From NCBI GenBank assembly GCA_037176705.1, contig JBAWUJ010000076.1, positions 310,001 through 374,000 of the forward strand: 64,000 nucleotides of DNA. The letters run 5' to 3'. Positions 37-64,000 of the stretch are shown here, piece after piece (within the stretch, counting starts at the first letter, position 1; the number at the start of each line of letters is the position of its first letter). A model generated the notes under the pieces. The model was not told where the DNA came from and searched no databases. It saw only the letters and a program-made list of their open reading frames with translations. This DNA comes from Molossus alvarezi (lineage: Eukaryota > Chordata > Mammalia > Chiroptera > Molossidae). Made by a program: the position numbers and the translations under genes.

Positions 37-45
37 GGAGCGGCC

Positions 46-166
46 AAAGCCTACAGCACCCGGCATTCCCAGGCGGTCTCCCATCCAAGTCCTGACCGGG
101 CCCGACCCTGCTTAGCTTCCCAGATCCCACGAGATCGGGCGCGTTCAGGGTGGTATGGCCGGAGAC
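46..166 (-). rRNA. 5S rRNA-like copy 1 (reference description)
   Basis: Read on the minus strand from 166 down to 46, this aligns without gaps to the 121-nt mammalian 5S rRNA gene. The differences from recalled human 5S are A5C, C39G, T40G, C46G, T69C, T73C, T76G and A103G, shared by every copy in the window. The A box (nt 50-64) and C box (nt 80-97) are unchanged; the intermediate element has T69C. On the standard 5S fold, A5C leaves a C-U mismatch in helix I, C46G breaks a helix III pair, C39G and T40G fall in loop C, and T73C and T76G fall in loop E. T69C and A103G keep helix V paired. I infer a transcribable but probably non-ribosomal 5S variant or pseudogene. This copy also has TTTG instead of TTTT at its 3' end. 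A functional variant 5S cannot be excluded. Confidence 0.88.
70..117 (-). promoter_or_regulatory. internal control region (A box, IE, C box) of 5S copy 1
   Basis: In 5S numbering nt n lies at position 167-n. The A box (nt 50-64) is at 103-117 and the C box (nt 80-97) at 70-87; both match mammalian 5S exactly. The intermediate element (nt 67-72, 95-100) reads CCCGGT instead of CCTGGT. In animal 5S genes this region binds TFIIIA and then TFIIIC/TFIIIB. The same arrangement recurs in every copy, with a second IE change (G70A) in copies 58 and 100. Confidence 0.75.
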
Positions 167-170
167 GTTG

Positions 171-178
171 GCGGCCGC
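171..178. other. NotI palindrome next to each 5S start
   Basis: The 8-bp NotI site GCGGCCGC lies at -5 to -12 from the 5S start, inside a 10-bp palindrome (170-179). It recurs in every monomer I inspected. The site is blocked by CpG methylation, so it could report both the monomer ladder and the methylation state. Confidence 0.85.
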
Positions 179-186
179 CTCCAGGC

Positions 187-198
187 GCCCTAAGAGTC
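187..198 (-). promoter_or_regulatory. D-box-like 5S upstream element (one per monomer)
   Basis: The minus strand reads GACTCTTAGGGC at -21 to -32 from the 5S start. The mammalian 5S D box, as I remember it, is GGCTCTTGGGGC at about this distance, so there are two mismatches in 12. The element is unchanged in all monomers I inspected, always 21 bp past the right end of a 5S copy. In mammals the D box raises Pol III transcription of 5S genes. Confidence 0.6.
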
Positions 199-298
199 CA
201 GCGCCTGGGCTGGCAGCCCCCCGGGCAGCCCCCCCGGCCGCCAGGCGGAGCGCGGACCGGCCCCTCTCAGCTCTCGGGGACCCAGGCGCGCGGTCCGT

Positions 299-305
299 CC
301 CGCCC
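299..305 (-). promoter_or_regulatory. GC box in spacer (one per monomer)
   Basis: The minus strand reads GGGCGGG about 133-139 bp upstream of the 5S start. This fits an Sp1/KLF-type GC box. In so GC-rich a spacer the match could be chance, so function is uncertain. Confidence 0.4.
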
Positions 306-343
306 AGCCTCGAACCAGGTCCTCACCGCGGAGCTCGGCAGGC

Positions 344-355
344 CGCGCATGCGCA
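344..355. promoter_or_regulatory. NRF1-type palindrome (one per monomer)
   Basis: CGCGCATGCGCA matches the NRF1 consensus YGCGCAYGCGCR in full, 178 bp upstream of the 5S start. Monomers fall into three states. C-first sites like this one keep the whole consensus. A-first sites (family B and others) lose one flanking base. Family D has A first and T last, leaving only the GCGCATGCGC core. Recurrence in every monomer gives about 108 sites in the window. Confidence 0.6.
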
Positions 356-546
356 GTCCAGGGGCCACAAGGTCTGCGCCTGGGGGGCCGGGGGGCCGCC
401 CCACGGGGCTGCGCTGCCCCACCGGCGGGCGCGGGCGCCCGCGAGTTGCGGCGCCTTGCGCGGCGGCCTGCTGGTGTGCTGCTGGGGCGTGGGGGGATCC
501 CCTCTGGGCCCCAGATTCCCTCGCTCGGCCCCCGGCGTGGGCTGGG

Positions 547-561
547 GCGCGTGCGTGCGTG
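547..561. other. alternating GC/GT tract (Z-DNA-prone)
   Basis: Fifteen bases alternate purine and pyrimidine (GCGCGTGCGTGCGTG). The tract recurs in every monomer, about 80 bp beyond the 3' end of the next 5S copy. Such tracts favour left-handed DNA under negative supercoiling. No function is shown. Confidence 0.5.
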
Positions 562-636
562 GGCTGCGTGGCCCTCGGCCCGAAGCGCGGCAGGTGCGCA
601 GCTGGCTGGCTGTGGGGGGACCAAAAAGGAGCGGCC

Positions 637-757
637 AAAGCCTACAGCACCCGGCATTCCCAGGCGGTCTCCCATCCAAGTCCTGACCGGGCCCGACCCT
701 GCTTAGCTTCCCAGATCCCACGAGATCGGGCGCGTTCAGGGTGGTATGGCCGGAGAC
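637..757 (-). rRNA. 5S rRNA-like copy 2
   Basis: Array consensus inside the 121 nt. The proximal terminator is TTTG. Promoter side: family A. Confidence 0.86.
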
Positions 758-1225
758 GTTGGCGGCCGCCTCCAGGCGCCCTAAGAGTCCAGCGCCTGGG
801 CTGGCAGCCCCCCGGGCAGCCCCCCGGCCGCCAGGCGGAGCGCGGACCGGCCCCTCTCAGCTCTCGGGGACCCAGGCGCGCGGTCCGTCCCGCCCAGCCT
901 CGAACCAGGTCCTCACCGCGGAGCTCGGCAGGCCGCGCATGCGCAGTCCAGGGGCCCCAAGGTCTGCGCCTGGGGGGCCGGGGGGTCCGCCCCACGGGGC
1001 TGCGCTGCCCCACCGGCGGGCGCGGGCGCCCGCGAGTTGCGGCGCCTTGCGCGGCGGCCTGCTGGTGTGCTGCTGGGGCGTGGGGGGTCCCCTCTGGGCC
1101 CCAGATTCCCTCGCTCGGCCCCCTGCGTGGGCTGGGGCGCGTGCGTGCGTGGGCTGCGTGGCCCTCGGCCCGAAGCGCGGCAGGTGCGCAGCTGGCTGGC
1201 TGTGGGGGGACCAAAAAGGAGCGGC

Positions 1226-1229
1226 AAAA
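1226..1229 (-). terminator. TTTT terminator at the 3' end of 5S copy 3
   Basis: Four T at 5S nt 119-122 form the normal proximal terminator. It is present after all copies except 1, 2, 23 and 24, where the fourth T is G. The T5 tract follows at 1213-1217. Confidence 0.65.
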
Positions 1230-1347
1230 GCCTACAGCACCCGGCATTCCCAGGCGGTCTCCCATCCAAGTCCTGACCGGGCCCGACCCTGCTTAGCTTC
1301 CCAGATCCCACGAGATCGGGCGCGTTCAGGGTGGTATGGCCGGAGAC
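1227..1347 (-). rRNA. 5S rRNA-like copy 3
   Basis: Array consensus with TTTT. Promoter side: family B. Confidence 0.86.
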
Positions 1348-1921
1348 GTTGGCGGCCGCCTCCAGGCGCCCTAAGAGTCCAGCGCCTGGGCTGGCAGCCC
1401 CCCGGGCAGCCCCCCCGGCCGCCAGGCGGAGCGCGGACCGGCCCCTCTCAGCACTCGGGGACCCAGGCGCGCGGTCCATCCCGCCCAGCCTCGAACCAGG
1501 TCCTCACCGCGGAGCTCGGCAGGCAGCGCATGCGCAGTCCAGGGGCCCCAAGGTCTGCGCCTGGGGGGCCGGGGGTCCGCCCCTCGGGGCTGCGCTGCCC
1601 CACCGGCGGGCGCGGGCGCCCGCGAGTTGCGGCGCCTTGCTCGGCGGCCTGCTGGTGTGCGGCTGGGGCGTGCGGGGATCCCCTCTGGGCCCCAGATTCC
1701 CTCGCTCGGCCCCCGGCGTGGGCTGGGGCGCGTGCGTGCGTGGGCTGCGTGGCCCTCGGCCCGAAGCGCGGCAGGTGCGCAGCTGGCTGGCTGTGGGGGG
1801 ACCAAAAAGGAGCGGCAAAAGCCTACAGCGCCCGGCATTCCCAGGCGGTCTCCCATCCAAGTCCTGACCGGGCCCGACCCTGCTTAGCTTCCCAGATCCC
1901 ACGAGATCGGGCGCGTTCAGG
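1331..1921 (-). repeat. monomer family B (591 bp, CTCGG/CGGCTGG type)
   Basis: Marked by TTGCTCGG, GTGCGGCTGG and GCGGGGATCC. Members start at 1331, 4281, 7822, 10185, 10776, 13730, 17271, 17862, 23767, 24358, 29673, 32041, 32632, 36776, 37367, 42098, 43870, 46258, 46849, 48625, 49216, 50991, 53356, 53947, 55722, 56907, 57498 and 61642. Most run into a 5S copy with T109C. A sub-branch with CTTGCGGGG starts at 29673, 43870, 46849, 49216, 53947 and 55722. Confidence 0.75.
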
Positions 1922-1938
1922 GTGGTATGGCCGGAGAC
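1818..1938 (-). rRNA. 5S rRNA-like copy 4
   Basis: T109C at 1830. Promoter side: family C (crossover type). Confidence 0.86.
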
Positions 1939-2407
1939 GTTGGCGGCCGCCTCCAGGCGCCCTAAGAGTCCAGCGCCTGGGCTGGCAGCCCCCCGGGCAG
2001 CCCCCCGGCCGCCAGGCGGAGCGCGGACCGGCCCCTCTCAGCTCTCGGGGACCCAGGCGCGCGGTCCGTCCCGCCCAGCCTCGAACCAGGTCCTCACCGC
2101 GGAGCTCGGCAGGCCGCGCATGCGCAGTCCAGGGGCCCCAAGGTCTGCGCCTGGGGGGCCGGGGGTCCGCCCCTCGGGGCTGCGCTGCCCCACCGGCGGG
2201 CGCGGGCGCCCGCGAGTTGCGGCGCCTTGCGCGGCGGCCTGCTGGTGTGCTGCTGGGGCGTGGGGGGATCCCCTCTGGGCCCCAGATTCCCTCGCTCGGC
2301 CCCCGGCGTGGGCTGGGGCGCGTGCGTGCGTGGGCTGCGTGGCCCTCGGCCCGAAGCATGGCAGGTGCGCAGCTAGCTGGCTGTGGGGGGACCAAAAAGG
2401 AGCGGCA

Positions 2408-2528
2408 AAAGCCTACAGCACCCGGCATTCCCAGGCGGTCTCCCATCCAAGTCCTGACCGGGCCCGACCCTGCTTAGCTTCCCAGATCCCACGAGATCGG
2501 GCACGTTCAGGGTGGTATGGCCGGAGAC
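2408..2528 (-). rRNA. 5S rRNA-like copy 5
   Basis: C26T at 2503. Promoter side: 589-bp A variant. Confidence 0.86.
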
Positions 2529-2996
2529 GTTGGCGGCCGCCTCCAGGCGCCCTAAGAGTCCAGCGCCTGGGCTGGCAGCCCCCCGGGCAGCCCCCCGGCC
2601 GCCAGGCGGAGCGCGGACCGGCCCCTCTCAGCTCTCGGGGACCCAGGCGCGCGGTCCGTCCCGCCCAGCCTCGAACCAGGTCCTCACCGCGGAGCTCGGC
2701 AGGCCGCGCATGCGCAGTCCAGGGGCCCCAAGGTCTGCGCCTGGGGGGCCGGGGGTCCGCCCCACGGGGCTGCGCTGCCCCACCGGCGGGCGCGGGCGCC
2801 CGCGAGTTGCGGCGCCTTGCGCGGCGGCCTGCTGGTGTGCTGCTGGGGCGTGGGGGGTCCCCTCTGGGCCCCAGATTCCCTCGCTCGGCCCCCGGCGTGG
2901 GCTGGGGCGCGTGCGTGCGTGGGCTGCGTGGCCCTCGGCCCGAAGCGCGGCAGGTGCGCAGCTGGCTGACTATGGGGGGACCAAAAAGGAGCGGCA

Positions 2997-3117
2997 AAAG
3001 CCTACAGCACCCGGCATTCCCAGGCGGTCTCCCATCCAAGTCCTGACCGGGCCCGACCCTGCTTAGCTTCCCAGATCCCACGAGATCGGGCGCGTTCAGG
3101 GTGGTATGGCCGGAGAC
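2997..3117 (-). rRNA. 5S rRNA-like copy 6
   Basis: Array consensus. Its 3' flank has the GCTGACTATG change. Promoter side: family A. Confidence 0.86.
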
Positions 3118-3586
3118 GTTGGCGGCCGCCTCCAGGCGCCCTAAGAGTCCAGCGCCTGGGCTGGCAGCCCCCCGGGCAGCCCCCCGGCCGCCAGGCGGAG
3201 CGCGGACCGGCCCCTCTCAGCTCTCGGGGACCCAGGCGCGCGGTCCGTCCCGCCCAGCCTCGAACCAGGTCCTCACCGCGGAGCTCGGCAGGCCGCGCAT
3301 GCGCAGTCCAGGGGCCCCAAGGTCTGCGCCTGGGGGGCCGGGGGGTCCGCCCCACGGGGCTGCGCTGCCCCACCGGCGGGCGCGGGCGCCCGCGAGTTGC
3401 GGCGCCTTGCGCGGCGGCCTGCTGGTGTGCTGCTGGGGCGTGGGGGGTCCCCTCTGGGCCCCAGATTCCCTCGCTCGGCCCCCGGCGTGGGCTGGGGCGC
3501 GTGCGTGCGTGGGCTGCGTGGCCCTCGGCCCGAAGCGCGGCAGGTGCGCAGCTGGCTGGCTGTGGGGGGACCAAAAAGGAGCGGCA

Positions 3587-3707
3587 AAAGCCTACAGCGC
3601 CCGGCATTCCCAGGCGGTCTCCCATCCAAGTCCTGACCGGGCCCGACCCTGCTTAGCTTCCCAGATCCCACGAGATCGGGCGCGTTCAGGGTGGTATGGC
3701 CGGAGAC
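3587..3707 (-). rRNA. 5S rRNA-like copy 7
   Basis: T109C, here after a family A 3' flank rather than B. Promoter side: family A. Confidence 0.86.
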
Positions 3708-4280
3708 GTTGGCGGCCGCCTCCAGGCGCCCTAAGAGTCCAGCGCCTGGGCTGGCAGCCCCCCGGGCAGCCCCCCGGCCGCCAGGCGGAGCGCGGACCGG
3801 CCCCTCTCAGCTCTCGGGGACCCAGGCGCGCGGTCCGTCCCGCCCAGCCTCGAACCAGGTCCTCACCGCGGAGCTCGGCAGGCCGCGCATGCGCAGTCCA
3901 GGGGCCCCAAGGTCTGCGCCTGGGGGGCCGGGGGGTCCGCCCCACGGGGCTGCGCTGCCCCACCGGCGGGCGCGGGCGCCCGCGAGTTGCGGCGCCTTGC
4001 GCGGCGGCCTGCTGGTGTGCTGCTGGGGCGTGGGGGGTCCCCTCTGGGCCCCAGATTCCCTCGCTCGGCCCCCGGCGTGGGCTGGGGCGCGTGCGTGCGT
4101 GGGCTGCGTGGCCCTCGGCCCGAAGCGCGGCAGGTGCGCAGCTGGCTGGCTGTGGGGGGACCAAAAAGGAGCGGCAAAAGCCTACAGCACCCGGCATTCC
4201 CAGGCGGTCTCCCATCCAAGTCCTGACCGGGCCCGACCCTGCTTAGCTTCCCAGATCCCACGAGATCGGGCGCGTTCAGG
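3691..4280 (-). repeat. monomer family A (590 bp, base type)
   Basis: Marked by a G6 run before TCCGCCCCAC, CGGCGGGCG, TTGCGCGG and a GGGGGGTCCCC junction. Members start at 741, 3101, 3691, 4872, 6642, 7232, 8413, 9594, 11367, 15500, 16090, 16681, 18453, 20818, 21409, 22587, 23177, 24949, 27314, 27905, 29083, 40917, 41508, 42689 and 51582. Close variants start at 2512, 6053 and 14911 (589 bp, G5 run), 11957, 30264 and 44482. Those at 47441, 49807 and 54538 carry GGATCC and CTGCATGG. Confidence 0.75.
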
Positions 4281-4297
4281 GTGGTATGGCCGGAGAC
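4177..4297 (-). rRNA. 5S rRNA-like copy 8
   Basis: Array consensus. Promoter side: family B. Confidence 0.86.
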
Positions 4298-4767
4298 GTT
4301 GGCGGCCGCCTCCAGGCGCCCTAAGAGTCCAGCGCCTGGGCTGGCAGCCCCCCGGGCAGCCCCCCCGGCCGCCAGGCGGAGCGCGGACCGGCCCCTCTCA
4401 GCACTCGGGGACCCAGGCGCGCGGTCCATCCCGCCCAGCCTCGAACCAGGTCCTCACCGCGGAGCTCGGCAGGCAGCGCATGCGCAGTCCAGGGGCCCCA
4501 AGGTCTGCGCCTGGGGGGCCGGGGGTCCGCCCCTCGGGGCTGCGCTGCCCCACCGGCGGGCGCGGGCGCCCGCGAGTTGCGGCGCCTTGCTCGGCGGCCT
4601 GCTGGTGTGCGGCTGGGGCGTGCGGGGATCCCCTCTGGGCCCCAGATTCCCTCGCTCGGCCCCCGGCGTGGGCTGGGGCGCGTGCGTGCGTGGGCTGCGT
4701 GGCCCTCGGCCCGAAGCGCGGCAGGTGCGCAGCTGGCTGGCTGTGGGGGGACCAAAAAGGAGCGGCA

Positions 4768-4888
4768 AAAGCCTACAGCGCCCGGCATTCCCAGGCGGTC
4801 TCCCATCCAAGTCCTGACCGGGCCCGACCCTGCTTAGCTTCCCAGATCCCACGAGATCGGGCGCGTTCAGGGTGGTATGGCCGGAGAC
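4768..4888 (-). rRNA. 5S rRNA-like copy 9
   Basis: T109C. Promoter side: family A. Confidence 0.86.
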
Positions 4889-5357
4889 GTTGGCGGCCGC
4901 CTCCAGGCGCCCTAAGAGTCCAGCGCCTGGGCTGGCAGCCCCCCGGGCAGCCCCCCGGCCGCCAGGCGGAGCGCGGACCGGCCCCTCTCAGCTCTCGGGG
5001 ACCCAGGCGCGCGGTCCGTCCCGCCCAGCCTCGAACCAGGTCCTCACCGCGGAGCTCGGCAGGCCGCGCATGCGCAGTCCAGGGGCCCCAAGGTCTGCGC
5101 CTGGGGGGCCGGGGGGTCCGCCCCACGGGGCTGCGCTGCCCCACCGGCGGGCGCGGGCGCCCGCGAGTTGCGGCGCCTTGCGCGGCGGCCTGCTGGTGTG
5201 CTGCTGGGGCGTGGGGGGTCCCCTCTGGGCCCCAGATTCCCTCGCTCGGCCCCCGGCGTGGGCTGGGGCGCGTGCGTGCGTGGGCTGCGTGGCCCTCGGC
5301 CCGAAGCGCGGCAGGTGCGCAGCTGGCTGGCTGTGGGGGGACCAAAAAGGAGCGGCA

Positions 5358-5478
5358 AAAGCCTACAGCACCCGGCATTCCCAGGCGGTCTCCCATCCAA
5401 GTCCTGACCGGGCCCGACCCTGCTTAGCTTCCCAGATCCCACGAGATCGGGCGCGTTCAGGGTGGTATGGCCGGAGAC
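5358..5478 (-). rRNA. 5S rRNA-like copy 10
   Basis: Array consensus. Promoter side: family C. Confidence 0.86.
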
Positions 5479-6052
5479 GTTGGCGGCCGCCTCCAGGCGC
5501 CCTAAGAGTCCAGCGCCTGGGCTGGCAGCCCCCCGGGCAGCCCCCCCGGCCGCCAGGCGGAGCGCGGACCGGCCCCTCTCAGCTCTCGGGGACCCAGGCG
5601 CGCGGTCCGTCCCGCCCAGCCTCGAACCAGGTCCTCACCGCGGAGCTCGGCAGGCCGCGCATGCGCAGTCCAGGGGCCCCAAGGTCTGCGCCTGGGGGGC
5701 CGGGGGTCCGCCCCTCGGGGCTGCGCTGCCCCACCGGCGGGCGCGGGCGCCCGCGAGTTGCGGCGCCTTGCGCGGCGGCCTGCTGGTGTGCTGCTGGGGC
5801 GTGGGGGGATCCCCTCTGGGCCCCAGATTCCCTCGCTCGGCCCCCGGCGTGGGCTGGGGCGCGTGCGTGCGTGGGCTGCGTGGCCCTCGGCCCGAAGCAT
5901 GGCAGGTGCGCAGCTAGCTGGCTGTGGGGGGACCAAAAAGGAGCGGCAAAAGCCTACAGCACCCGGCATTCCCAGGCGGTCTCCCATCCAAGTCCTGACC
6001 GGGCCCGACCCTGCTTAGCTTCCCAGATCCCACGAGATCGGGCACGTTCAGG
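5462..6052 (-). repeat. monomer family C (590-591 bp, GCATGGCAGG type)
   Basis: Marked by CCGCCCCTCGG with TTGCGCGG, GGGGGGATCC and GAAGCATGG. Members start at 1922, 5462, 9003 and 14321. A related type without CATGG (C2) starts at 33223, 37958, 58089 and 62233. Members at 1922 and 14321 have six C instead of seven near the 5S side and look like crossover products with family A. Confidence 0.7.
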
Positions 6053-6069
6053 GTGGTATGGCCGGAGAC
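5949..6069 (-). rRNA. 5S rRNA-like copy 11
   Basis: C26T at 6044. Promoter side: 589-bp A variant. Confidence 0.86.
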
Positions 6070-6537
6070 GTTGGCGGCCGCCTCCAGGCGCCCTAAGAGT
6101 CCAGCGCCTGGGCTGGCAGCCCCCCGGGCAGCCCCCCGGCCGCCAGGCGGAGCGCGGACCGGCCCCTCTCAGCTCTCGGGGACCCAGGCGCGCGGTCCGT
6201 CCCGCCCAGCCTCGAACCAGGTCCTCACCGCGGAGCTCGGCAGGCCGCGCATGCGCAGTCCAGGGGCCCCAAGGTCTGCGCCTGGGGGGCCGGGGGTCCG
6301 CCCCACGGGGCTGCGCTGCCCCACCGGCGGGCGCGGGCGCCCGCGAGTTGCGGCGCCTTGCGCGGCGGCCTGCTGGTGTGCTGCTGGGGCGTGGGGGGTC
6401 CCCTCTGGGCCCCAGATTCCCTCGCTCGGCCCCCGGCGTGGGCTGGGGCGCGTGCGTGCGTGGGCTGCGTGGCCCTCGGCCCGAAGCGCGGCAGGTGCGC
6501 AGCTGGCTGACTATGGGGGGACCAAAAAGGAGCGGCA

Positions 6538-6658
6538 AAAGCCTACAGCACCCGGCATTCCCAGGCGGTCTCCCATCCAAGTCCTGACCGGGCCCGACCC
6601 TGCTTAGCTTCCCAGATCCCACGAGATCGGGCGCGTTCAGGGTGGTATGGCCGGAGAC
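6538..6658 (-). rRNA. 5S rRNA-like copy 12
   Basis: Array consensus, with GCTGACTATG in its 3' flank. Promoter side: family A. Confidence 0.86.
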
Positions 6659-7127
6659 GTTGGCGGCCGCCTCCAGGCGCCCTAAGAGTCCAGCGCCTGG
6701 GCTGGCAGCCCCCCGGGCAGCCCCCCGGCCGCCAGGCGGAGCGCGGACCGGCCCCTCTCAGCTCTCGGGGACCCAGGCGCGCGGTCCGTCCCGCCCAGCC
6801 TCGAACCAGGTCCTCACCGCGGAGCTCGGCAGGCCGCGCATGCGCAGTCCAGGGGCCCCAAGGTCTGCGCCTGGGGGGCCGGGGGGTCCGCCCCACGGGG
6901 CTGCGCTGCCCCACCGGCGGGCGCGGGCGCCCGCGAGTTGCGGCGCCTTGCGCGGCGGCCTGCTGGTGTGCTGCTGGGGCGTGGGGGGTCCCCTCTGGGC
7001 CCCAGATTCCCTCGCTCGGCCCCCGGCGTGGGCTGGGGCGCGTGCGTGCGTGGGCTGCGTGGCCCTCGGCCCGAAGCGCGGCAGGTGCGCAGCTGGCTGG
7101 CTGTGGGGGGACCAAAAAGGAGCGGCA

Positions 7128-7248
7128 AAAGCCTACAGCGCCCGGCATTCCCAGGCGGTCTCCCATCCAAGTCCTGACCGGGCCCGACCCTGCTTAGCTT
7201 CCCAGATCCCACGAGATCGGGCGCGTTCAGGGTGGTATGGCCGGAGAC
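7128..7248 (-). rRNA. 5S rRNA-like copy 13
   Basis: T109C. Promoter side: family A. Confidence 0.86.
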
Positions 7249-7717
7249 GTTGGCGGCCGCCTCCAGGCGCCCTAAGAGTCCAGCGCCTGGGCTGGCAGCC
7301 CCCCGGGCAGCCCCCCGGCCGCCAGGCGGAGCGCGGACCGGCCCCTCTCAGCTCTCGGGGACCCAGGCGCGCGGTCCGTCCCGCCCAGCCTCGAACCAGG
7401 TCCTCACCGCGGAGCTCGGCAGGCCGCGCATGCGCAGTCCAGGGGCCCCAAGGTCTGCGCCTGGGGGGCCGGGGGGTCCGCCCCACGGGGCTGCGCTGCC
7501 CCACCGGCGGGCGCGGGCGCCCGCGAGTTGCGGCGCCTTGCGCGGCGGCCTGCTGGTGTGCTGCTGGGGCGTGGGGGGTCCCCTCTGGGCCCCAGATTCC
7601 CTCGCTCGGCCCCCGGCGTGGGCTGGGGCGCGTGCGTGCGTGGGCTGCGTGGCCCTCGGCCCGAAGCGCGGCAGGTGCGCAGCTGGCTGGCTGTGGGGGG
7701 ACCAAAAAGGAGCGGCA

Positions 7718-7838
7718 AAAGCCTACAGCACCCGGCATTCCCAGGCGGTCTCCCATCCAAGTCCTGACCGGGCCCGACCCTGCTTAGCTTCCCAGATCCC
7801 ACGAGATCGGGCGCGTTCAGGGTGGTATGGCCGGAGAC
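7718..7838 (-). rRNA. 5S rRNA-like copy 14
   Basis: Array consensus. Promoter side: family B. Confidence 0.86.
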
Positions 7839-8308
7839 GTTGGCGGCCGCCTCCAGGCGCCCTAAGAGTCCAGCGCCTGGGCTGGCAGCCCCCCGGGCAG
7901 CCCCCCCGGCCGCCAGGCGGAGCGCGGACCGGCCCCTCTCAGCACTCGGGGACCCAGGCGCGCGGTCCATCCCGCCCAGCCTCGAACCAGGTCCTCACCG
8001 CGGAGCTCGGCAGGCAGCGCATGCGCAGTCCAGGGGCCCCAAGGTCTGCGCCTGGGGGGCCGGGGGTCCGCCCCTCGGGGCTGCGCTGCCCCACCGGCGG
8101 GCGCGGGCGCCCGCGAGTTGCGGCGCCTTGCTCGGCGGCCTGCTGGTGTGCGGCTGGGGCGTGCGGGGATCCCCTCTGGGCCCCAGATTCCCTCGCTCGG
8201 CCCCCGGCGTGGGCTGGGGCGCGTGCGTGCGTGGGCTGCGTGGCCCTCGGCCCGAAGCGCGGCAGGTGCGCAGCTGGCTGGCTGTGGGGGGACCAAAAAG
8301 GAGCGGCA

Positions 8309-8429
8309 AAAGCCTACAGCGCCCGGCATTCCCAGGCGGTCTCCCATCCAAGTCCTGACCGGGCCCGACCCTGCTTAGCTTCCCAGATCCCACGAGATCG
8401 GGCGCGTTCAGGGTGGTATGGCCGGAGAC
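8309..8429 (-). rRNA. 5S rRNA-like copy 15
   Basis: T109C. Promoter side: family A. Confidence 0.86.
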
Positions 8430-8898
8430 GTTGGCGGCCGCCTCCAGGCGCCCTAAGAGTCCAGCGCCTGGGCTGGCAGCCCCCCGGGCAGCCCCCCGGC
8501 CGCCAGGCGGAGCGCGGACCGGCCCCTCTCAGCTCTCGGGGACCCAGGCGCGCGGTCCGTCCCGCCCAGCCTCGAACCAGGTCCTCACCGCGGAGCTCGG
8601 CAGGCCGCGCATGCGCAGTCCAGGGGCCCCAAGGTCTGCGCCTGGGGGGCCGGGGGGTCCGCCCCACGGGGCTGCGCTGCCCCACCGGCGGGCGCGGGCG
8701 CCCGCGAGTTGCGGCGCCTTGCGCGGCGGCCTGCTGGTGTGCTGCTGGGGCGTGGGGGGTCCCCTCTGGGCCCCAGATTCCCTCGCTCGGCCCCCGGCGT
8801 GGGCTGGGGCGCGTGCGTGCGTGGGCTGCGTGGCCCTCGGCCCGAAGCGCGGCAGGTGCGCAGCTGGCTGGCTGTGGGGGGACCAAAAAGGAGCGGCA

Positions 8899-9019
8899 AA
8901 AGCCTACAGCACCCGGCATTCCCAGGCGGTCTCCCATCCAAGTCCTGACCGGGCCCGACCCTGCTTAGCTTCCCAGATCCCACGAGATCGGGCGCGTTCA
9001 GGGTGGTATGGCCGGAGAC
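8899..9019 (-). rRNA. 5S rRNA-like copy 16
   Basis: Array consensus. Promoter side: family C. Confidence 0.86.
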
Positions 9020-9489
9020 GTTGGCGGCCGCCTCCAGGCGCCCTAAGAGTCCAGCGCCTGGGCTGGCAGCCCCCCGGGCAGCCCCCCCGGCCGCCAGGCG
9101 GAGCGCGGACCGGCCCCTCTCAGCTCTCGGGGACCCAGGCGCGCGGTCCGTCCCGCCCAGCCTCGAACCAGGTCCTCACCGCGGAGCTCGGCAGGCCGCG
9201 CATGCGCAGTCCAGGGGCCCCAAGGTCTGCGCCTGGGGGGCCGGGGGTCCGCCCCTCGGGGCTGCGCTGCCCCACCGGCGGGCGCGGGCGCCCGCGAGTT
9301 GCGGCGCCTTGCGCGGCGGCCTGCTGGTGTGCTGCTGGGGCGTGGGGGGATCCCCTCTGGGCCCCAGATTCCCTCGCTCGGCCCCCGGCGTGGGCTGGGG
9401 CGCGTGCGTGCGTGGGCTGCGTGGCCCTCGGCCCGAAGCATGGCAGGTGCGCAGCTGGCTGGCTGTGGGGGGACCAAAAAGGAGCGGCA

Positions 9490-44311: not shown

Positions 44312-44353
44312 AGGTGCGCAGCTGGCTGGCTGAGGTGCGCAGCTGGCTGGCTG
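44312..44353. repeat. private 21-bp perfect tandem duplication
   Basis: Two identical 21-bp units (44312-44332 and 44333-44353), AGGTGCGC...GGCTG, lie in the spacer 24 bp beyond the 3' end of 5S copy 76. All other monomers have one unit. It makes this monomer 612 bp instead of 591 bp. Confidence 0.95.
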
Positions 44354-48624: not shown

Positions 48625-48641
48625 GTGGTATGGCCGGAGAC
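48521..48641 (-). rRNA. 5S rRNA-like copy 83
   Basis: Array consensus. Promoter side: family B. Confidence 0.86.
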
Positions 48642-55024: not shown

Positions 55025-55145
55025 AAAGCCTACAGCACCCGGCATTCCCAGGCGGTCTCCCATCCAAGTCCTGACCGGGCCCGACCCTGCTTAGCTTCCC
55101 AGAACCCACGAGATCGGGCGCGTTCAGGGTGGTATGGCCGGAGAC
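55025..55145 (-). rRNA. 5S rRNA-like copy 94
   Basis: A42T at 55104. Promoter side: family G. Confidence 0.86.
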
Positions 55146-55617
55146 GTTGGCGGCCGCCTCCAGGCGCCCTAAGAGTCCAGCGCCGGGGCTGGCAGCCCCC
55201 CGGGCAGCCCCCCCGGCCGCCAGGCGGAGCGCGGACCGGCCCCTCTCAGCTCTCGGGGACCCAGGCGCGCGGTCCGTCCCGCCCAGCCTCGAACCAGGTC
55301 CTCACCGCGGAGCTCGGCAGGCCGCGCATGCGCAGTCCAGGGGCCCCAAGGTCTGCGCCTGGGGGGCCGGGGGTCCGCCCCTCGGGGCTGCGCTGCCCCA
55401 CCGGGGGGGGCGCGGGCGCCCGCGAGTTGCGGCGCCTTGCTCGGCGGCCTGCTGGTGTGCGGCTGGGGCGTGCGGGGATCCCCTCTGGGCCCCAGATTCC
55501 CTCGCTCGGCCCCCGGCGTGGGCTGGGGCGCGTGCGTGCGTGGGCTGCGTGGCCCTCGGCCCGAAGCGCGGCAGGTGCGCAGCTGGCTGGCTGTGGGGGG
55601 ACCAAAAAGGAGCGGCA

Positions 55618-55738
55618 AAAGCCTACAGCGCCCGGCATTCCCAGGCGGTCTCCCATCCAAGTCCTGACCGGGCCCGACCCTGCTTAGCTTCCCAGATCCC
55701 ACGAGATCGGGCGCGTTCAGGGTGGTATGGCCGGAGAC
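55618..55738 (-). rRNA. 5S rRNA-like copy 95
   Basis: T109C. Promoter side: family B, CTTGCGGGG branch. Confidence 0.86.
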
Positions 55739-56208
55739 GTTGGCGGCCGCCTCCAGGCGCCCTAAGAGTCCAGCGCCTGGGCTGGCAGCCCCCCGGGCAG
55801 CCCCCCCGGCCGCCAGGCGGAGCGCGGACCGGCCCCTCTCAGCACTCGGGGACCCAGGCGCGCGGTCCATCCCGCCCAGCCTCGAACCAGGTCCTCACCG
55901 CGGAGCTCGGCAGGCAGCGCATGCGCAGTCCAGGGGCCCCAAGGTCTGCGCCTGGGGGGCCGGGGGTCCGCCCCTCGGGGCTGCGCTGCCCCACCGGCGG
56001 GCGCGGGCGCCCGCGAGTTGCGGCGCCTTGCTCGGCGGCCTGCTGGTGTGCGGCTGGGGCTTGCGGGGATCCCCTCTGGGCCCCAGATTCCCTCGCTCGG
56101 CCCCCGGCGTGGGCTGGGGCGCGTGCGTGCGTGGGCTGCGTGGCCCTCGGCCCGAAGCGCGGCAGGTGCGCAGCTGGCTGGCTGTGGGGGGACCAAAAAG
56201 GAGCGGCA

Positions 56209-56329
56209 AAAGCCTACAGCGCCCGGCATTCCCAGGCGGTCTCCCATCCAAGTCCTGACCGGGCCCGACCCTGCTTAGCTTCCCAGATCCCACGAGATCG
56301 GGCGCGTTCAGGGTGGTATGGCCGGAGAC
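56209..56329 (-). rRNA. 5S rRNA-like copy 96
   Basis: T109C. Promoter side: family F with G9. Confidence 0.86.
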
Positions 56330-56802
56330 GTTGGCGGCCGCCTCCAGGCGCCCTAAGAGTCCAGCGCCTGGGCTGGCAGCCCCCCGGGCAGCCCCCCCGG
56401 CCGCCAGGCGGAGCGCGGACCGGCCCCTCTCAGCTCTCGGGGACCCAGGCGCGCGGTCCGTCCCGCCCAGCCTCGAACCAGGTCCTCACCGCGGAGCTCG
56501 GCAGGCAGCGCATGCGCAGTCCAGGGTCCCCAAGGTCTGCGCCTGGGGGGCCGGGGGGTCCGCCCCACGGGGCTGCGCTGCCCCACCGGGGGGGGGCGCG
56601 GGCGCCCGCGAGTTGCGGCGCCTTGCGCGGCGGCCTGCTGGTGTGCTGCTGGGGCGTGGGGGGTCCCCTCTGGGCCCCAGATTCCCTCGCTCGGCCCCCG
56701 GCGTGGGCTGGGGCGCGTGCGTGCGTGGGCTGCATGGCCCTCGGCCCGAAGCGCGGCAGGTGCGCAGCTGGCTGGCTGTGGGGGTACCAAAAAGGAGCGG
56801 CA

Positions 56803-56923
56803 AAAGCCTACAGCACCCGGCATTCCCAGGCGGTCTCCCATCCAAGTCCTGACCGGGCCCGACCCTGCTTAGCTTCCCAGATCCCACGAGATCGGGCGCG
56901 TTCAGGGTGGTATGGCCGGAGAC
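56803..56923 (-). rRNA. 5S rRNA-like copy 97
   Basis: Array consensus; flank has CTGCATGG yet no A42T. Promoter side: family B. Confidence 0.86.
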
Positions 56924-57393
56924 GTTGGCGGCCGCCTCCAGGCGCCCTAAGAGTCCAGCGCCTGGGCTGGCAGCCCCCCGGGCAGCCCCCCCGGCCGCCA
57001 GGCGGAGCGCGGACCGGCCCCTCTCAGCACTCGGGGACCCAGGCGCGCGGTCCGTCCCGCCCAGCCTCGAACCAGGTCCTCACCGCGGAGCTCGGCAGGC
57101 AGCGCATGCGCAGTCCAGGGGCCCCAAGGTCTGCGCCTGGGGGGCCGGGGGTCCGCCCCTCGGGGCTGCGCTGCCCCACCGGCGGGCGCGGGCGCCCGCG
57201 AGTTGCGGCGCCTTGCTCGGCGGCCTGCTGGTGTGCGGCTGGGGCGTGCGGGGATCCCCTCTGGGCCCCAGATTCCCTCGCTCGGCCCCCGGCGTGGGCT
57301 GGGGCGCGTGCGTGCGTGGGCTGCGTGGCCCTCGGCCCGAAGCGCGGCAGGTGCGCAGCTGGCTGGCTGTGGGGGGACCAAAAAGGAGCGGCA

Positions 57394-57514
57394 AAAGCCT
57401 ACAGCGCCCGGCATTCCCAGGCGGTCTCCCATCCAAGTCCTGACCGGGCCCGACCCTGCTTAGCTTCCCAGATCCCACGAGATCGGGCGCGTTCAGGGTG
57501 GTATGGCCGGAGAC
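57394..57514 (-). rRNA. 5S rRNA-like copy 98
   Basis: T109C. Promoter side: family B. Confidence 0.86.
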
Positions 57515-57984
57515 GTTGGCGGCCGCCTCCAGGCGCCCTAAGAGTCCAGCGCCTGGGCTGGCAGCCCCCCGGGCAGCCCCCCCGGCCGCCAGGCGGAGCG
57601 CGGACCGGCCCCTCTCAGCACTCGGGGACCCAGGCGCGCGGTCCATCCCGCCCAGCCTCGAACCAGGTCCTCACCGCGGAGCTCGGCAGGCAGCGCATGC
57701 GCAGTCCAGGGGCCCCAAGGTCTGCGCCTGGGGGGCCGGGGGTCCGCCCCTCGGGGCTGCGCTGCCCCACCGGCGGGCGCGGGCGCCCGCGAGTTGCGGC
57801 GCCTTGCTCGGCGGCCTGCTGGTGTGCGGCTGGGGCGTGCGGGGATCCCCTCTGGGCCCCAGATTCCCTCGCTCGGCCCCCGGCGTGGGCTGGGGCGCGT
57901 GCGTGCGTGGGCTGCGTGGCCCTCGGCCCGAAGCGCGGCAGGTGCGCAGCTGGCTGGCTGTGGGGGGACCAAAAAGGAGCGGCA

Positions 57985-58105
57985 AAAGCCTACAGCGCCC
58001 GGCATTCCCAGGCGGTCTCCCATCCAAGTCCTGACCGGGCCCGACCCTGCTTAGCTTCCCAGATCCCACGAGATCGGGCGCGTTCAGGGTGGTATGGCCG
58101 GAGAC
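57985..58105 (-). rRNA. 5S rRNA-like copy 99
   Basis: T109C. Promoter side: family C2. Confidence 0.86.
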
Positions 58106-58575
58106 GTTGGCGGCCGCCTCCAGGCGCCCTAAGAGTCCAGCGCCTGGGCTGGCAGCCCCCCGGGCAGCCCCCCCGGCCGCCAGGCGGAGCGCGGACCGGC
58201 CCCTCTCAGCTCTCGGGGACCCAGGCGCGCGGTCCGTCCCGCCCAGCCTCGAACCAGGTCCTCACCGCGGAGCTCGGCAGGCCGCGCATGCGCAGTCCAG
58301 GGGCCCCAAGGTCTGCGCCTGGGGGGCCGGGGGTCCGCCCCTCGGGGCTGCGCTGCCCCACCGGCGGGCGCGGGCGCCCGCGAGTTGCGGCGCCTTGCGC
58401 GGCGGCCTGCTGGTGTGCTGCTGGGGCGTGGGGGGATCCCCTCTGGGCCCCAGATTCCCTCGCTCGGCCCCCGGCGTGGGCTGGGGCGCGTGCGTGCGTG
58501 GGCTGCGTGGCCCTCGGCCCGAAGCGCGGCAGGTGCGCAGCTGGCTGGCTGTGGGGGGACCAAAAAGGAGCGGCA

Positions 58576-58696
58576 AAAGCCTACAGCACCCGGCATTCCC
58601 AGGCGGTCTCCCATCCAAGTCCTGACTGGGCCCGACCCTGCTTAGCTTCCCAGATCCCACGAGATCGGGCGCGTTCAGGGTGGTATGGCCGGAGAC
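58576..58696 (-). rRNA. 5S rRNA-like copy 100
   Basis: G70A at 58627, shared only with copy 58. Promoter side: family D. Confidence 0.86.
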
Positions 58697-59167
58697 GTTG
58701 GCGGCCGCCTCCAGGCGCCCTAAGAGTCCAGCGCCGGGACTGGCAGCCCCCGGGCAGCCCCCCCGGCCGCCAGGCGGAGCGCGGACCGGCCCCTCTCAGC
58801 TCTCGGGGACCCAGGCGCGCGGTCCGTCCCGCCCAGCCTCGAACCAGGTCCTCACCGCGGAGCTCGGCAGGCAGCGCATGCGCTGTCCAGGGGCCACAAG
58901 GTCTGCGCCTGGGGGGCCGGGGGGTCCGCCCCACGGGGCTGCGCTGCCCCACCGGGGGGGGCGCGGGCGCCCGCGAGTTGCGGCGCCTTGCGCGGCGGCC
59001 TGCTGGTGTGCTGCTGGGGCGTGGGGGGTCCCCTCTGGGCCCCAGATTCCCTCGCTAGGCCCCCGGCGTGGGCTGGGGCGCGTGCGTGCGTGGGCTGCGT
59101 GGCCCTCGGCCCGAAGCGCGGCAGGTGCGCAGCTGGCTGGCTGTGGGGGGACCAAAAAGGAGCGGCA

Positions 59168-59288
59168 AAAGCCTACAGCACCCGGCATTCCCAGGCGGTC
59201 TCCCATCCAAGTCCTGACCGGGCCCGACCCTGCTTAGCTTCCCAGATCCCACGAGATCGGGCGCGTTCAGGGTGGTATGGCCGGAGAC
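59168..59288 (-). rRNA. 5S rRNA-like copy 101
   Basis: Array consensus. Promoter side: family F with G8. Confidence 0.86.
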
Positions 59289-59760
59289 GTTGGCGGCCGC
59301 CTCCAGGCGCCCTAAGAGTCCAGCGCCTGGGCTGGCAGCCCCCCGGGCAGCCCCCCCGGCCGCCAGGCGGAGCGCGGACCGGCCCCTCTCAGCTCTCGGG
59401 GACCCAGGCGCGCGGTCCGTCCCGCCCAGCCTCGAACCAGGTCCTCACCGCGGAGCTCGGCAGGCAGCGCATGCGCAGTCCAGGGTCCCCAAGGTCTGCG
59501 CCTGGGGGGCCGGGGGGTCCGCCCCACGGGGCTGCGCTGCCCCACCGGGGGGGGCGCGGGCGCCCGCGAGTTGCGGCGCCTTGCGCGGCGGCCTGCTGGT
59601 GTGCTGCTGGGGCGTGGGGGGTCCCCTCTGGGCCCCAGATTCCCTCGCTCGGCCCCCGGCGTGGGCTGGGGCGCGTGCGTGCGTGGGCTGCGTGGCCCTC
59701 GGCCCGAAGCGCGGCAGGTGCGCAGCTGGCTGGCTGTGGGGGGACCAAAAAGGAGCGGCA

Positions 59761-59881
59761 AAAGCCTACAGCACCCGGCATTCCCAGGCGGTCTCCCATC
59801 CAAGTCCTGACCGGGCCCGACCCTGCTTAGCTTCCCAGATCCCACGAGATCGGGCGCGTTCAGGGTGGTATGGCCGGAGAC
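59761..59881 (-). rRNA. 5S rRNA-like copy 102
   Basis: Array consensus. Promoter side: family E. Confidence 0.86.
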
Positions 59882-60350
59882 GTTGGCGGCCGCCTCCAGG
59901 CGCCCTAAGAGTCCAGCGCCTGGGCTGGCAGCCCCCCGGGCAGCTCCCCCGGCCGCCAGGCGGAGCGCGGACCGGCCCCTCTCAGCTCTCGGGGACCCAG
60001 GCGCGCGGTCCGTCCCGCCCAGCCTCGAACCAGGTCCTCACCGCGGAGCTCGGCAGGCAGCGCATGCGCAGTCCAGGGGCCCCAAGGTCTGCGCCTGGGG
60101 GGCCGGGGGTCCGCCCCTCGGGGCTGCGCTGCCCCACCTGCGGGCGCGGGCGCCCGCCAGTTGCGGCGCCTTGCGCGGCGGCCTGCTGGTGTGCTGCTGG
60201 GGCGTGCGGGGTCCCCTCTGGGCCCCAGATTCCCTCGCTCGGCCCCCGGCGTGGGCTGGGGCGCGTGCGTGCGTGGGCTGCATGGCCCTCGGCCCGAAGC
60301 GCGGCAGGTGCGCAGCTGGCTGGCTGTGGGGGGACCAAAAAGGAGCGGCA

Positions 60351-60471
60351 AAAGCCTACAGCACCCGGCATTCCCAGGCGGTCTCCCATCCAAGTCCTGA
60401 CCGGGCCCGACCCTGCTTAGCTTCCCAGAACCCACGAGATCGGGCGCGTTCAGGGTGGTATGGCCGGAGAC
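60351..60471 (-). rRNA. 5S rRNA-like copy 103
   Basis: A42T at 60430. Promoter side: recombinant family D. Confidence 0.86.
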
Positions 60472-60943
60472 GTTGGCGGCCGCCTCCAGGCGCCCTAAGA
60501 GTCCAGCGCCGGGGCTGGCAGCCCCCCGGGCAGCCCCCCCGGCCGCCAGGCGGAGCGCGGACCGGCCCCTCTCAGCTCTCGGGGACCCAGGCGCGCGGTC
60601 CGTCCCGCCCAGCCTCGAACCAGGTCCTCACCGCGGAGCTCGGCAGGCAGCGCATGCGCTGTCCAGGGGCCACAAGGTCTGCGCCTGGGGGGCCGGGGGG
60701 TCCGCCCCACGGGGCTGCGCTGCCCCACCGGGGGGGGCGCGGGCGCCCGCGAGTTGCGGCGCCTTGCGCGGCGGCCTGCTGGTGTGCTGCTGGGGCGTGG
60801 GGGGTCCCCTCTGGGCCCCAGATTCCCTCGCTAGGCCCCCGGCGTGGGCTGGGGCGCGTGCGTGCGTGGGCTGCGTGGCCCTCGGCCCGAAGCGCGGCAG
60901 GTGCGCAGCTGGCTGGCTGTGGGGGGACCAAAAAGGAGCGGCA

Positions 60944-61064
60944 AAAGCCTACAGCACCCGGCATTCCCAGGCGGTCTCCCATCCAAGTCCTGACCGGGCC
61001 CGACCCTGCTTAGCTTCCCAGATCCCACGAGATCGGGCGCGTTCAGGGTGGTATGGCCGGAGAC
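60944..61064 (-). rRNA. 5S rRNA-like copy 104
   Basis: Array consensus. Promoter side: family F with G9. Confidence 0.86.
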
Positions 61065-61537
61065 GTTGGCGGCCGCCTCCAGGCGCCCTAAGAGTCCAGC
61101 GCCTGGGCTGGCAGCCCCCCGGGCAGCCCCCCCGGCCGCCAGGCGGAGCGCGGACCGGCCCCTCTCAGCTCTCGGGGACCCAGGCGCGCGGTCCGTCCCG
61201 CCCAGCCTCGAACCAGGTCCTCACCGCGGAGCTCGGCAGGCAGCGCATGCGCAGTCCAGGGTCCCCAAGGTCTGCGCCTGGGGGGCCGGGGGGTCCGCCC
61301 CACGGGGCTGCGCTGCCCCACCGGGGGGGGGCGCGGGCGCCCGCGAGTTGCGGCGCCTTGCGCGGCGGCCTGCTGGTGTGCTGCTGGGGCGTGGGGGGTC
61401 CCCTCTGGGCCCCAGATTCCCTCGCTCGGCCCCCGGCGTGGGCTGGGGCGCGTGCGTGCGTGGGCTGCGTGGCCCTCGGCCCGAAGCGCGGCAGGTGCGC
61501 AGCTGGCTGGCTGTGGGGGTACCAAAAAGGAGCGGCA

Positions 61538-61658
61538 AAAGCCTACAGCACCCGGCATTCCCAGGCGGTCTCCCATCCAAGTCCTGACCGGGCCCGACCC
61601 TGCTTAGCTTCCCAGATCCCACGAGATCGGGCGCGTTCAGGGTGGTATGGCCGGAGAC
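61538..61658 (-). rRNA. 5S rRNA-like copy 105
   Basis: Array consensus, GGTACC in 3' flank. Promoter side: family B. Confidence 0.86.
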
Positions 61659-62128
61659 GTTGGCGGCCGCCTCCAGGCGCCCTAAGAGTCCAGCGCCTGG
61701 GCTGGCAGCCCCCCGGGCAGCCCCCCCGGCCGCCAGGCGGAGCGCGGACCGGCCCCTCTCAGCACTCGGGGACCCAGGCGCGCGGTCCGTCCCGCCCAGC
61801 CTCGAACCAGGTCCTCACCGCGGAGCTCGGCAGGCAGCGCATGCGCAGTCCAGGGGCCCCAAGGTCTGCGCCTGGGGGGCCGGGGGTCCGCCCCTCGGGG
61901 CTGCGCTGCCCCACCGGCGGGCGCGGGCGCCCGCGAGTTGCGGCGCCTTGCTCGGCGGCCTGCTGGTGTGCGGCTGGGGCGTGCGGGGATCCCCTCTGGG
62001 CCCCAGATTCCCTCGCTCGGCCCCCGGCGTGGGCTGGGGCGCGTGCGTGCGTGGGCTGCGTGGCCCTCGGCCCGAAGCGCGGCAGGTGCGCAGCTGGCTG
62101 GCTGTGGGGGGACCAAAAAGGAGCGGCA

Positions 62129-62249
62129 AAAGCCTACAGCGCCCGGCATTCCCAGGCGGTCTCCCATCCAAGTCCTGACCGGGCCCGACCCTGCTTAGCT
62201 TCCCAGATCCCACGAGATCGGGCGCGTTCAGGGTGGTATGGCCGGAGAC
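62129..62249 (-). rRNA. 5S rRNA-like copy 106
   Basis: T109C. Promoter side: family C2. Confidence 0.86.
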
Positions 62250-62719
62250 GTTGGCGGCCGCCTCCAGGCGCCCTAAGAGTCCAGCGCCTGGGCTGGCAGC
62301 CCCCCGGGCAGCCCCCCCGGCCGCCAGGCGGAGCGCGGACCGGCCCCTCTCAGCTCTCGGGGACCCAGGCGCGCGGTCCGTCCCGCCCAGCCTCGAACCA
62401 GGTCCTCACCGCGGAGCTCGGCAGGCCGCGCATGCGCAGTCCAGGGGCCCCAAGGTCTGCGCCTGGGGGGCCGGGGGTCCGCCCCTCGGGGCTGCGCTGC
62501 CCCACCGGCGGGCGCGGGCGCCCGCGAGTTGCGGCGCCTTGCGCGGCGGCCTGCTGGTGTGCTGCTGGGGCGTGGGGGGATCCCCTCTGGGCCCCAGATT
62601 CCCTCGCTCGGCCCCCGGCGTGGGCTGGGGCGCGTGCGTGCGTGGGCTGCGTGGCCCTCGGCCCGAAGCGCGGCAGGTGCGCAGCTGGCTGGCTGTGGGG
62701 GGACCAAAAAGGAGCGGCA

Positions 62720-62840
62720 AAAGCCTACAGCACCCGGCATTCCCAGGCGGTCTCCCATCCAAGTCCTGACCGGGCCCGACCCTGCTTAGCTTCCCAGATC
62801 CCACGAGATCGGGCGCGTTCAGGGTGGTATGGCCGGAGAC
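62720..62840 (-). rRNA. 5S rRNA-like copy 107
   Basis: Array consensus. Promoter side: family D. Confidence 0.86.
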
Positions 62841-63311
62841 GTTGGCGGCCGCCTCCAGGCGCCCTAAGAGTCCAGCGCCGGGACTGGCAGCCCCCGGGCA
62901 GCCCCCCCGGCCGCCAGGCGGAGCGCGGACCGGCCCCTCTCAGCTCTCGGGGACCCAGGCGCGCGGTCCGTCCCGCCCAGCCTCGAACCAGGTCCTCACC
63001 GCGGAGCTCGGCAGGCAGCGCATGCGCTGTCCAGGGGCCACAAGGTCTGCGCCTGGGGGGCCGGGGGGTCCGCCCCACGGGGCTGCGCTGCCCCACCGGG
63101 GGGGGCGCGGGCGCCCGCGAGTTGCGGCGCCTTGCGCGGCGGCCTGCTGGTGTGCTGCTGGGGCGTGGGGGGTCCCCTCTGGGCCCCAGATTCCCTCGCT
63201 AGGCCCCCGGCGTGGGCTGGGGCGCGTGCGTGCGTGGGCTGCGTGGCCCTCGGCCCGAAGCGCGGCAGGTGCGCAGCTGGCTGGCTGTGGGGGGACCAAA
63301 AAGGAGCGGCA

Positions 63312-63432
63312 AAAGCCTACAGCACCCGGCATTCCCAGGCGGTCTCCCATCCAAGTCCTGACCGGGCCCGACCCTGCTTAGCTTCCCAGATCCCACGAGA
63401 TCGGGCGCGTTCAGGGTGGTATGGCCGGAGAC
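63312..63432 (-). rRNA. 5S rRNA-like copy 108
   Basis: Array consensus. Promoter side: family F with G8, the last spacer in the window. Confidence 0.86.
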
Positions 63433-63904
63433 GTTGGCGGCCGCCTCCAGGCGCCCTAAGAGTCCAGCGCCTGGGCTGGCAGCCCCCCGGGCAGCCCCCC
63501 CGGCCGCCAGGCGGAGCGCGGACCGGCCCCTCTCAGCTCTCGGGGACCCAGGCGCGCGGTCCGTCCCGCCCAGCCTCGAACCAGGTCCTCACCGCGGAGC
63601 TCGGCAGGCAGCGCATGCGCAGTCCAGGGTCCCCAAGGTCTGCGCCTGGGGGGCCGGGGGGTCCGCCCCACGGGGCTGCGCTGCCCCACCGGGGGGGGCG
63701 CGGGCGCCCGCGAGTTGCGGCGCCTTGCGCGGCGGCCTGCTGGTGTGCTGCTGGGGCGTGGGGGGTCCCCTCTGGGCCCCAGATTCCCTCGCTCGGCCCC
63801 CGGCGTGGGCTGGGGCGCGTGCGTGCGTGGGCTGCGTGGCCCTCGGCCCGAAGCGCGGCAGGTGCGCAGCTGGCTGGCTGTGGGGGGACCAAAAAGGAGC
63901 GGCA

Positions 63905-64000
63905 AAAGCCTACAGCACCCGGCATTCCCAGGCGGTCTCCCATCCAAGTCCTGACCGGGCCCGACCCTGCTTAGCTTCCCAGATCCCACGAGATCGGGCG
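63905..64000 (-). rRNA. 5S rRNA-like copy 109 (partial, window edge)
   Basis: Only nt 26-121 are inside the window; the 5' 25 nt and the promoter side lie beyond base 64000. The visible part is array consensus. Confidence 0.84.

What the first reader, a model, noticed from the sequence alone, without database searches (positions are those of the whole stretch)
46..64000. Array-wide variant 5S RNA with eight fixed substitutions
All 109 copies share the same eight differences from recalled mammalian 5S rRNA. They must predate the spread of the array or have been fixed by homogenization. A5C, C39G, T40G, C46G, T73C and T76G should disturb helix I, helix III, loop C and loop E, while T69C and A103G keep helix V paired. 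The cluster thus looks like a 5S-derived satellite whose transcript, if made, would be a distinct 5S-like RNA and not ordinary ribosomal 5S.
Basis: partly seen in the sequence, partly recalled or inferred. Interest (0 to 1): 0.75.

Follow-up and report, generated by a model that had tools for sequence, protein, structure and literature searches.

The report
Drifted 5S array, promoter mostly kept
A long, nearly uniform row of altered 5S ribosomal RNA gene copies, probably from a mammal, seems to have lost the RNA's normal shape while keeping most of the DNA switches that turn such genes on, so it is most likely a pseudogene-type array rather than a working ribosome gene cluster.

Summary
The window is one unbroken minus-strand array of 109 5S-like copies (108 complete, one cut by the window end), unit about 590 bp. 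The eight stated differences from mammalian 5S (recalled) are fixed in every copy read. Such divergence alone would not disqualify a 5S: recalled frog and chicken 5S, 7-11 changes from mammal, still favour the 5S fold (mean probability of canonical pairs 0.64-0.82), whereas this variant does not (0.03), and it keeps that fold no better than random substitutions. A-box, C-box and a D-box-like element at -32 to -21 are identical in 108 of 108 complete copies and a T4 terminator follows 104 of 108; the intermediate element carries T69C. All eight derived bases are G or C, and none of nine CpGs was lost by deamination, suggesting GC-biased homogenization. Best reading: a non-ribosomal, pseudogene-type 5S array that may still bind TFIIIA/TFIIIC. 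Rat has a 5S pseudogene repeat (title only); this may even be it. Species, ordinary 5S cluster and transcripts could not be examined, so a specialised second 5S-like RNA is not excluded.

The parts
46..64000 (-). Tandem array of 109 5S-like units (108 complete genes, one cut by the window end), unit about 590 bp
46..166 (-). First 5S-like gene copy (example), 121 nt, eight fixed differences from recalled mammalian 5S
103..117 (-). A-box (gene positions 50-64) of the first copy; identical to canonical in 108 of 108 complete copies
   Evidence: box limits recalled
95..100 (-). Intermediate element (67-72) of the first copy; carries fixed T69C
   Evidence: box limits recalled
70..87 (-). C-box (80-97) of the first copy; identical to canonical in 108 of 108 complete copies
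   Evidence: box limits recalled
187..198 (-). D-box-like element GACTCTTAGGGC at -32 to -21 of the first copy; 10 of 12 match to the recalled human D-box; same letters in 108 of 108 complete copies
45..48 (-). Terminator position after the first gene: TTTG here, TTTT in 104 of 108 complete copies
32..36 (-). Back-up T5 run downstream of the first gene; seen after 108 of 108 complete copies
167..636 (-). One GC-rich spacer (consensus unit GC 76%, CpG observed/expected 0.77)

Best explanation
This is a homogenized tandem array of a 5S-derived, non-ribosomal (pseudogene-type) gene in a mammalian-type genome. A whole 5S unit with its D-box, internal promoter and terminator was amplified away from ribosomal selection (inferred). 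Unequal exchange and gene conversion then spread eight substitutions, all ending in G or C, through every copy (fixation shown, process inferred). The RNA no longer favours the 5S fold (predicted), while the D-box-like element, A-box and C-box are uniform in every complete copy (shown). The array therefore probably still binds TFIIIA/TFIIIC and may be transcribed into a short-lived 5S-like RNA, or act as a nucleolus-associated DNA element as described for some mouse 5S pseudogenes (inferred).
For: 109 of 109 copies share the changes (108 for position 5). Mean probability of canonical pairs: variant 0.03; mammal 0.83; frog somatic 0.82 and oocyte 0.65; chicken 0.64 (all references recalled; chicken the least certain and itself lacking one of 37 pairs). 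Against 600 random eight-change mutants of the same base changes the variant is not better preserved: 2 of 37 pairs broken vs mean 3.1, P=0.29; fold probability 0.028 vs mean 0.318, 92% of mutants as good or better. On the purely Rfam-derived list it breaks 3 of 34. A- and C-box perfect and D-box-like element unchanged in 108 of 108; 0 of 12 variable gene sites (8 fixed, 4 polymorphic) in A- or C-box (P=0.018) and 0 of 40 polymorphic unit sites in A+C+D (P=0.037). D-box match 10 of 12 at the expected place; mononucleotide shuffles give P 5e-5 for that exact place, 0.0095 anywhere in 60 bp (motif recalled). Six AT-to-GC and no GC-to-AT fixed changes, against 6 and 25 among polymorphisms (P=4e-4); 8 of 9 CpGs kept. 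Many mouse 5S pseudogenes keep A/C boxes without 5S structure and a subset associates with the nucleolus (PMC3261910, passages and part 2 of Results).
Against: Gene and spacer polymorphism do not differ significantly (4 of 121 vs 36 of 469 sites, P=0.10). Including the intermediate element, avoidance of promoter boxes is not significant (2 of 12, P=0.19); for the eight fixed changes alone A/C avoidance is P=0.07, and P=0.20 with the intermediate element. The D-box match leads other places in the unit by one base only (9 of 12 at four other listed places). The fold loss leans on two changes: reverting T76G alone restores 0.69, reverting A5C 0.44; position 76 is in loop E, whose non-standard pairs the program ignores. 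Five of the eight changes are unpaired or keep pairing. Promoter tests were chosen after seeing the sequence. [quoted passage not shown]
Confidence: 0.62

Rival explanations
1. Inert 5S-derived satellite: promoter boxes persist only because the family is young or because homogenization keeps all sites alike, with no factor binding or transcript.
For: Gene and spacer polymorphism do not differ significantly; box-avoidance P values are modest or not significant; CpG transitions among polymorphisms are enriched about threefold; a 5S-derived satellite is known in Hoplias malabaricus (PMC5437419 passages).
Against: 8 of 9 gene CpGs are kept and the ninth went by transversion; unit CpG observed/expected is 0.77, unlike long-methylated repeats; the D-box-like element outside the gene is uniform in 108 of 108.
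Confidence: 0.2
2. A second, specialised 5S rRNA type (germline or stage specific), as in zebrafish and (recalled) Xenopus, that does enter ribosomes or storage particles.
For: Near-complete upstream and internal promoter, TTTT after 104 of 108 copies; separate maternal and somatic 5S genes are real in zebrafish (PMC11075544 passages).
Against: Recalled frog oocyte 5S, 11 changes from mammal, keeps the 5S fold in the same calculation, this one does not; pairs 5-114 and 31-46 and U76 of loop E are lost.
Confidence: 0.1
3. The ordinary ribosomal 5S cluster of an unusual species.
For: Large, homogeneous array with most promoter parts; RF00001 scores well above gathering.
Against: All eight positions are alike in recalled mammal, frog and chicken 5S; predicted fold lost.
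Confidence: 0.05

Closest known systems
Rat 5S rRNA pseudogene repeat at 12q12 (Frederiksen et al. 1997)
   Same: A mammalian 5S pseudogene repeat at a locus apart from the bona fide 5S repeat (only the title was seen, in a reference list)
   Different: Its sequence and unit length were not available here; the window could be this very array or an independent one
Dispersed mouse 5S pseudogenes with intact A/C boxes (PMC3261910, passages and part 2 of Results)
   Same: RNA structure lost, internal promoter boxes kept in many
   Different: Annotated outside the 5S array, not described there as a homogenized array with D-box and terminator
5S-derived satellite of Hoplias malabaricus (PMC5437419 passages)
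   Same: 5S-derived satellite with a changed predicted fold
   Different: That satellite was reported as much less stable than functional 5S (about 28 vs 50 kcal/mol); here stability is as high as canonical (-52.5 vs -50.5)
Maternal/somatic 5S genes of zebrafish (PMC11075544 passages)
   Same: A separate locus of a sequence-variant 5S
   Different: No expression evidence here, and the predicted fold is lost

Membership tests
5S rRNA gene (RF00001) | Covariance-model score above gathering | tested here: met
   109 matches, 51.1-85.6 bits vs 38
5S rRNA gene (RF00001) | Transcript favours the 5S fold | tested here: not met
   Mean canonical-pair probability 0.03 vs 0.64-0.83 in recalled references; prediction only, loop E not modelled, 0.69 if T76G alone is reverted
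5S rRNA gene (RF00001) | Incorporated in the ribosome | not testable with these tools
   No RNA data, species unknown
Pol III type 1 promoter | A-box and C-box intact | tested here: met
   108 of 108 complete copies; limits recalled
Pol III type 1 promoter | Intermediate element intact | tested here: not met
   T69C in 109 of 109; G70A in 2 of 108
Mammalian 5S upstream promoter | D-box at -32 to -21 | tested here: inconclusive
   10 of 12 bases to a recalled motif at the recalled place; same letters in 108 of 108 copies
5S pseudogene repeat / 5S-derived satellite | Tandem, homogenized, 5S-derived, fixed changes that disrupt the predicted 5S fold | tested here: met
5S pseudogene repeat / 5S-derived satellite | Separate functional 5S cluster in the same genome | not testable with these tools
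   No genome held
Rat 12q12 pseudogene repeat | Sequence identity with that repeat | not tested
   Reference sequence not available; title only

The most novel reading that the evidence does not exclude
A mammal maintains a second 5S array with nearly complete promoter whose product is a distinct, non-ribosomal 5S-like RNA with an alternative fold, made in particular cells and kept uniform by GC-biased homogenization of weakly methylated DNA.
Probability: 0.12. Interest if true: 0.8.

Novelty: new member of a known kind. Interest (0 to 1): 0.38.

Why it matters
It would be a clean natural experiment: over a hundred near-identical units in which the predicted 5S RNA structure has drifted while A-, C- and D-boxes have not. 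That lets one ask whether Pol III factor binding alone is enough to maintain an array and to place it at the nucleolus, and it warns that 5S annotation and copy-number counts can mix such arrays with ribosomal 5S.

Tried and rejected
Species identification: no whole genome is held. These collections hold viruses and prokaryotes, so the empty results say little. Ten paper searches gave no listed paper that I could match to this unit; I did not open most of the listed papers. The variant 5' end was searched as a string: 0 occurrences in the 24 papers listed of 25 found; all 24 hold the canonical string. A goat T2T paper (PMC11579321 passages) places 5S only on CHI28 and gives no unit sequence. 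PMC13215694 (passages) says that most of the human 1q42 5S copies may be pseudogenes. A chicken 5S-beta idea was dropped because the gene matches the mammalian type better (8 vs 15 differences, recalled sequences). A fuzzy search returned only the 66 identical copies and was superseded by the anchor search. Thermodynamic stability is no argument: 51% of 1000 random mutants are as stable or more.

Weak or failed tests: gene vs spacer diversity (P=0.10); promoter avoidance with the intermediate element (P=0.19; P=0.20 for fixed changes alone); CpG transitions among polymorphisms are enriched about threefold (8 of 134 vs 6 of 315, P=0.035), so methylation-type change is not absent. Polymorphism counts use 107 gene-to-gene units, base changes at consensus positions only; insertions, deletions and the cut copy were left out. 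The pair list was edited by hand from the Rfam list: 76-101 dropped, 69-106, 72-103, 81-96 and 82-95 added (84-94 was added but is not a standard pair in the reference and was not scored).

Full report
Observation. Rfam finds RF00001 at 109 places, all on the minus strand, across the whole window. Copies are 587-612 bp apart, 101 of 107 complete units being 590-594 bp. The consensus unit is 590 bp, 76% GC, CpG observed/expected 0.77. Eight differences from the mammalian 5S (recalled) are present in every copy: seven positions in 109 of 109, position 5 in the 108 that reach it. Within the array the gene varies at four sites, T109C, A42T, C26T and G70A; 66 of 108 complete genes are identical. 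Of 107 gene-to-gene units 44 are distinct, with a mean of 9.7 differing alignment columns. The Rfam consensus supports the canonical base at 39, 46, 73, 76 and 103 and is uninformative at 5, 40 and 69.

Structure. On the Rfam-derived pairing (mapped) the variant breaks 3 of 34 pairs: 5-114, 31-46 and 76-101. On a hand-edited list of 37 pairs (76-101 dropped, four recalled pairs added) it breaks 2, and T69C and A103G keep pairing. The variant has a mean probability of 0.028 for these pairs, the mammalian reference 0.833. Recalled functional 5S with similar divergence still favour the 5S fold: frog somatic 8 differences from mammal, 0.815; frog oocyte 11, 0.653; chicken 7, 0.637, the last with one broken pair and the least certain recall. 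All eight changed positions are alike in these four references. Against 600 random mutants with the same base changes the variant is not better preserved: 2 broken pairs vs a mean of 3.1 (P=0.29), fold probability 0.028 vs a mean of 0.318, 92% of mutants as good or better. So no sign of selection for the ribosomal fold was found. Against this: the loss leans on T76G and A5C. Reverting T76G alone gives 0.69, reverting A5C alone 0.44; singly on the canonical background, T76G gives 0.26, A5C 0.43, T73C 0.51, and the other five stay at 0.78 or more. The program does not model the non-standard pairs of loop E, where 73 and 76 lie.

Promoter. A-box and C-box are identical to canonical in 108 of 108 complete copies, and GACTCTTAGGGC sits at -32 to -21 in 108 of 108. 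It is the best D-box match of the unit, 10 of 12 to the motif as I recall it, with four other places at 9 of 12 among the five listed. That mammals have an enhancing D-box for 5S is stated in PMC3464664 (passages); its letters and place are recalled. TTTT follows the gene in 104 of 108 copies and a T5 run stands downstream in 108 of 108. None of the 12 variable gene sites falls in the A- or C-box (P=0.018) and none of 40 polymorphic unit sites in A+C+D (P=0.037). But the intermediate element carries T69C in every copy; with it included the test fails (P=0.19), the eight fixed changes alone give P=0.07 (0.20 with the intermediate element), and gene and spacer do not differ significantly in polymorphic sites (4 of 121 vs 36 of 469, P=0.10). 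These tests were chosen after seeing the data.

Base direction. All eight derived bases are G or C (P=0.002 under uniform change). Six are AT-to-GC and none GC-to-AT; per site P=0.004. Polymorphisms run 6 to 25 the other way (fixed vs polymorphic P=4e-4), though per available site their rates are similar (6 of 141 and 25 of 449). Eight of nine canonical CpGs are kept and the ninth is lost by a transversion. I infer GC-biased gene conversion in DNA that is not heavily methylated in the germline; a threefold enrichment of CpG transitions among polymorphisms (P=0.035) shows that this is not absolute.

What it is. The gene is nearer to the mammalian 5S than to recalled chicken or frog (8 vs 15-19 differences), so the source is probably a mammal; the species stays unknown. 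Best reading: a pseudogene-type 5S array, released from ribosomal selection, homogenized, still holding most of its promoter. In mouse, more than 110 annotated 5S copies outside the array lack 5S structure, a high proportion keep A/C boxes, a subset associates with the nucleolus, and 5S transgenes lower neighbouring transcription; TFIIIC enrichment did not track localization well (PMC3261910, passages and Results part 2). 5S pseudogene transcripts can be expressed and activate RIG-I (PMC10498592 passages). Whether this array binds factors or is transcribed is inference.

Precedent. The rat has a bona fide 5S repeat and a separate pseudogene repeat at 12q12 (title of Frederiksen et al. 1997 in the reference list of PMC7806164; the paper itself was not seen). 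The window may be that array or an independent case. Hence new member of a known kind, with moderate interest. The bold reading, a second mammalian 5S-like RNA with its own fold, is not excluded and is directly testable by reads with the diagnostic bases.

Noticed in passing
44312-44353: A 21-bp tandem duplication in one spacer makes the single 612-bp unit.
   Followed up: partly
46, 637, 13035, 13626 (gene low ends): Four of 108 complete copies have TTTG instead of TTTT after the gene; the downstream T5 remains.
   Followed up: partly
344-355 in the first unit (unit position 402): An NRF1-like palindrome TGCGCATGCGCG (motif recalled) lies in the spacer, starting at -189 from the next gene; its first base is T in 98 and A in 9 of 107 units.
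   Followed up: no
whole array: Units 8, 11 or 21 apart are identical more often (11 of 99, 13 of 96, 8 of 86) than at the other lags from 1 to 24 (0 to 5 identical pairs each), which suggests multi-unit block duplications.
   Followed up: partly
unit positions 414-472: The least variable spacer bin of those tabulated, 1 polymorphic site in 59; not tested for significance.
   Followed up: no
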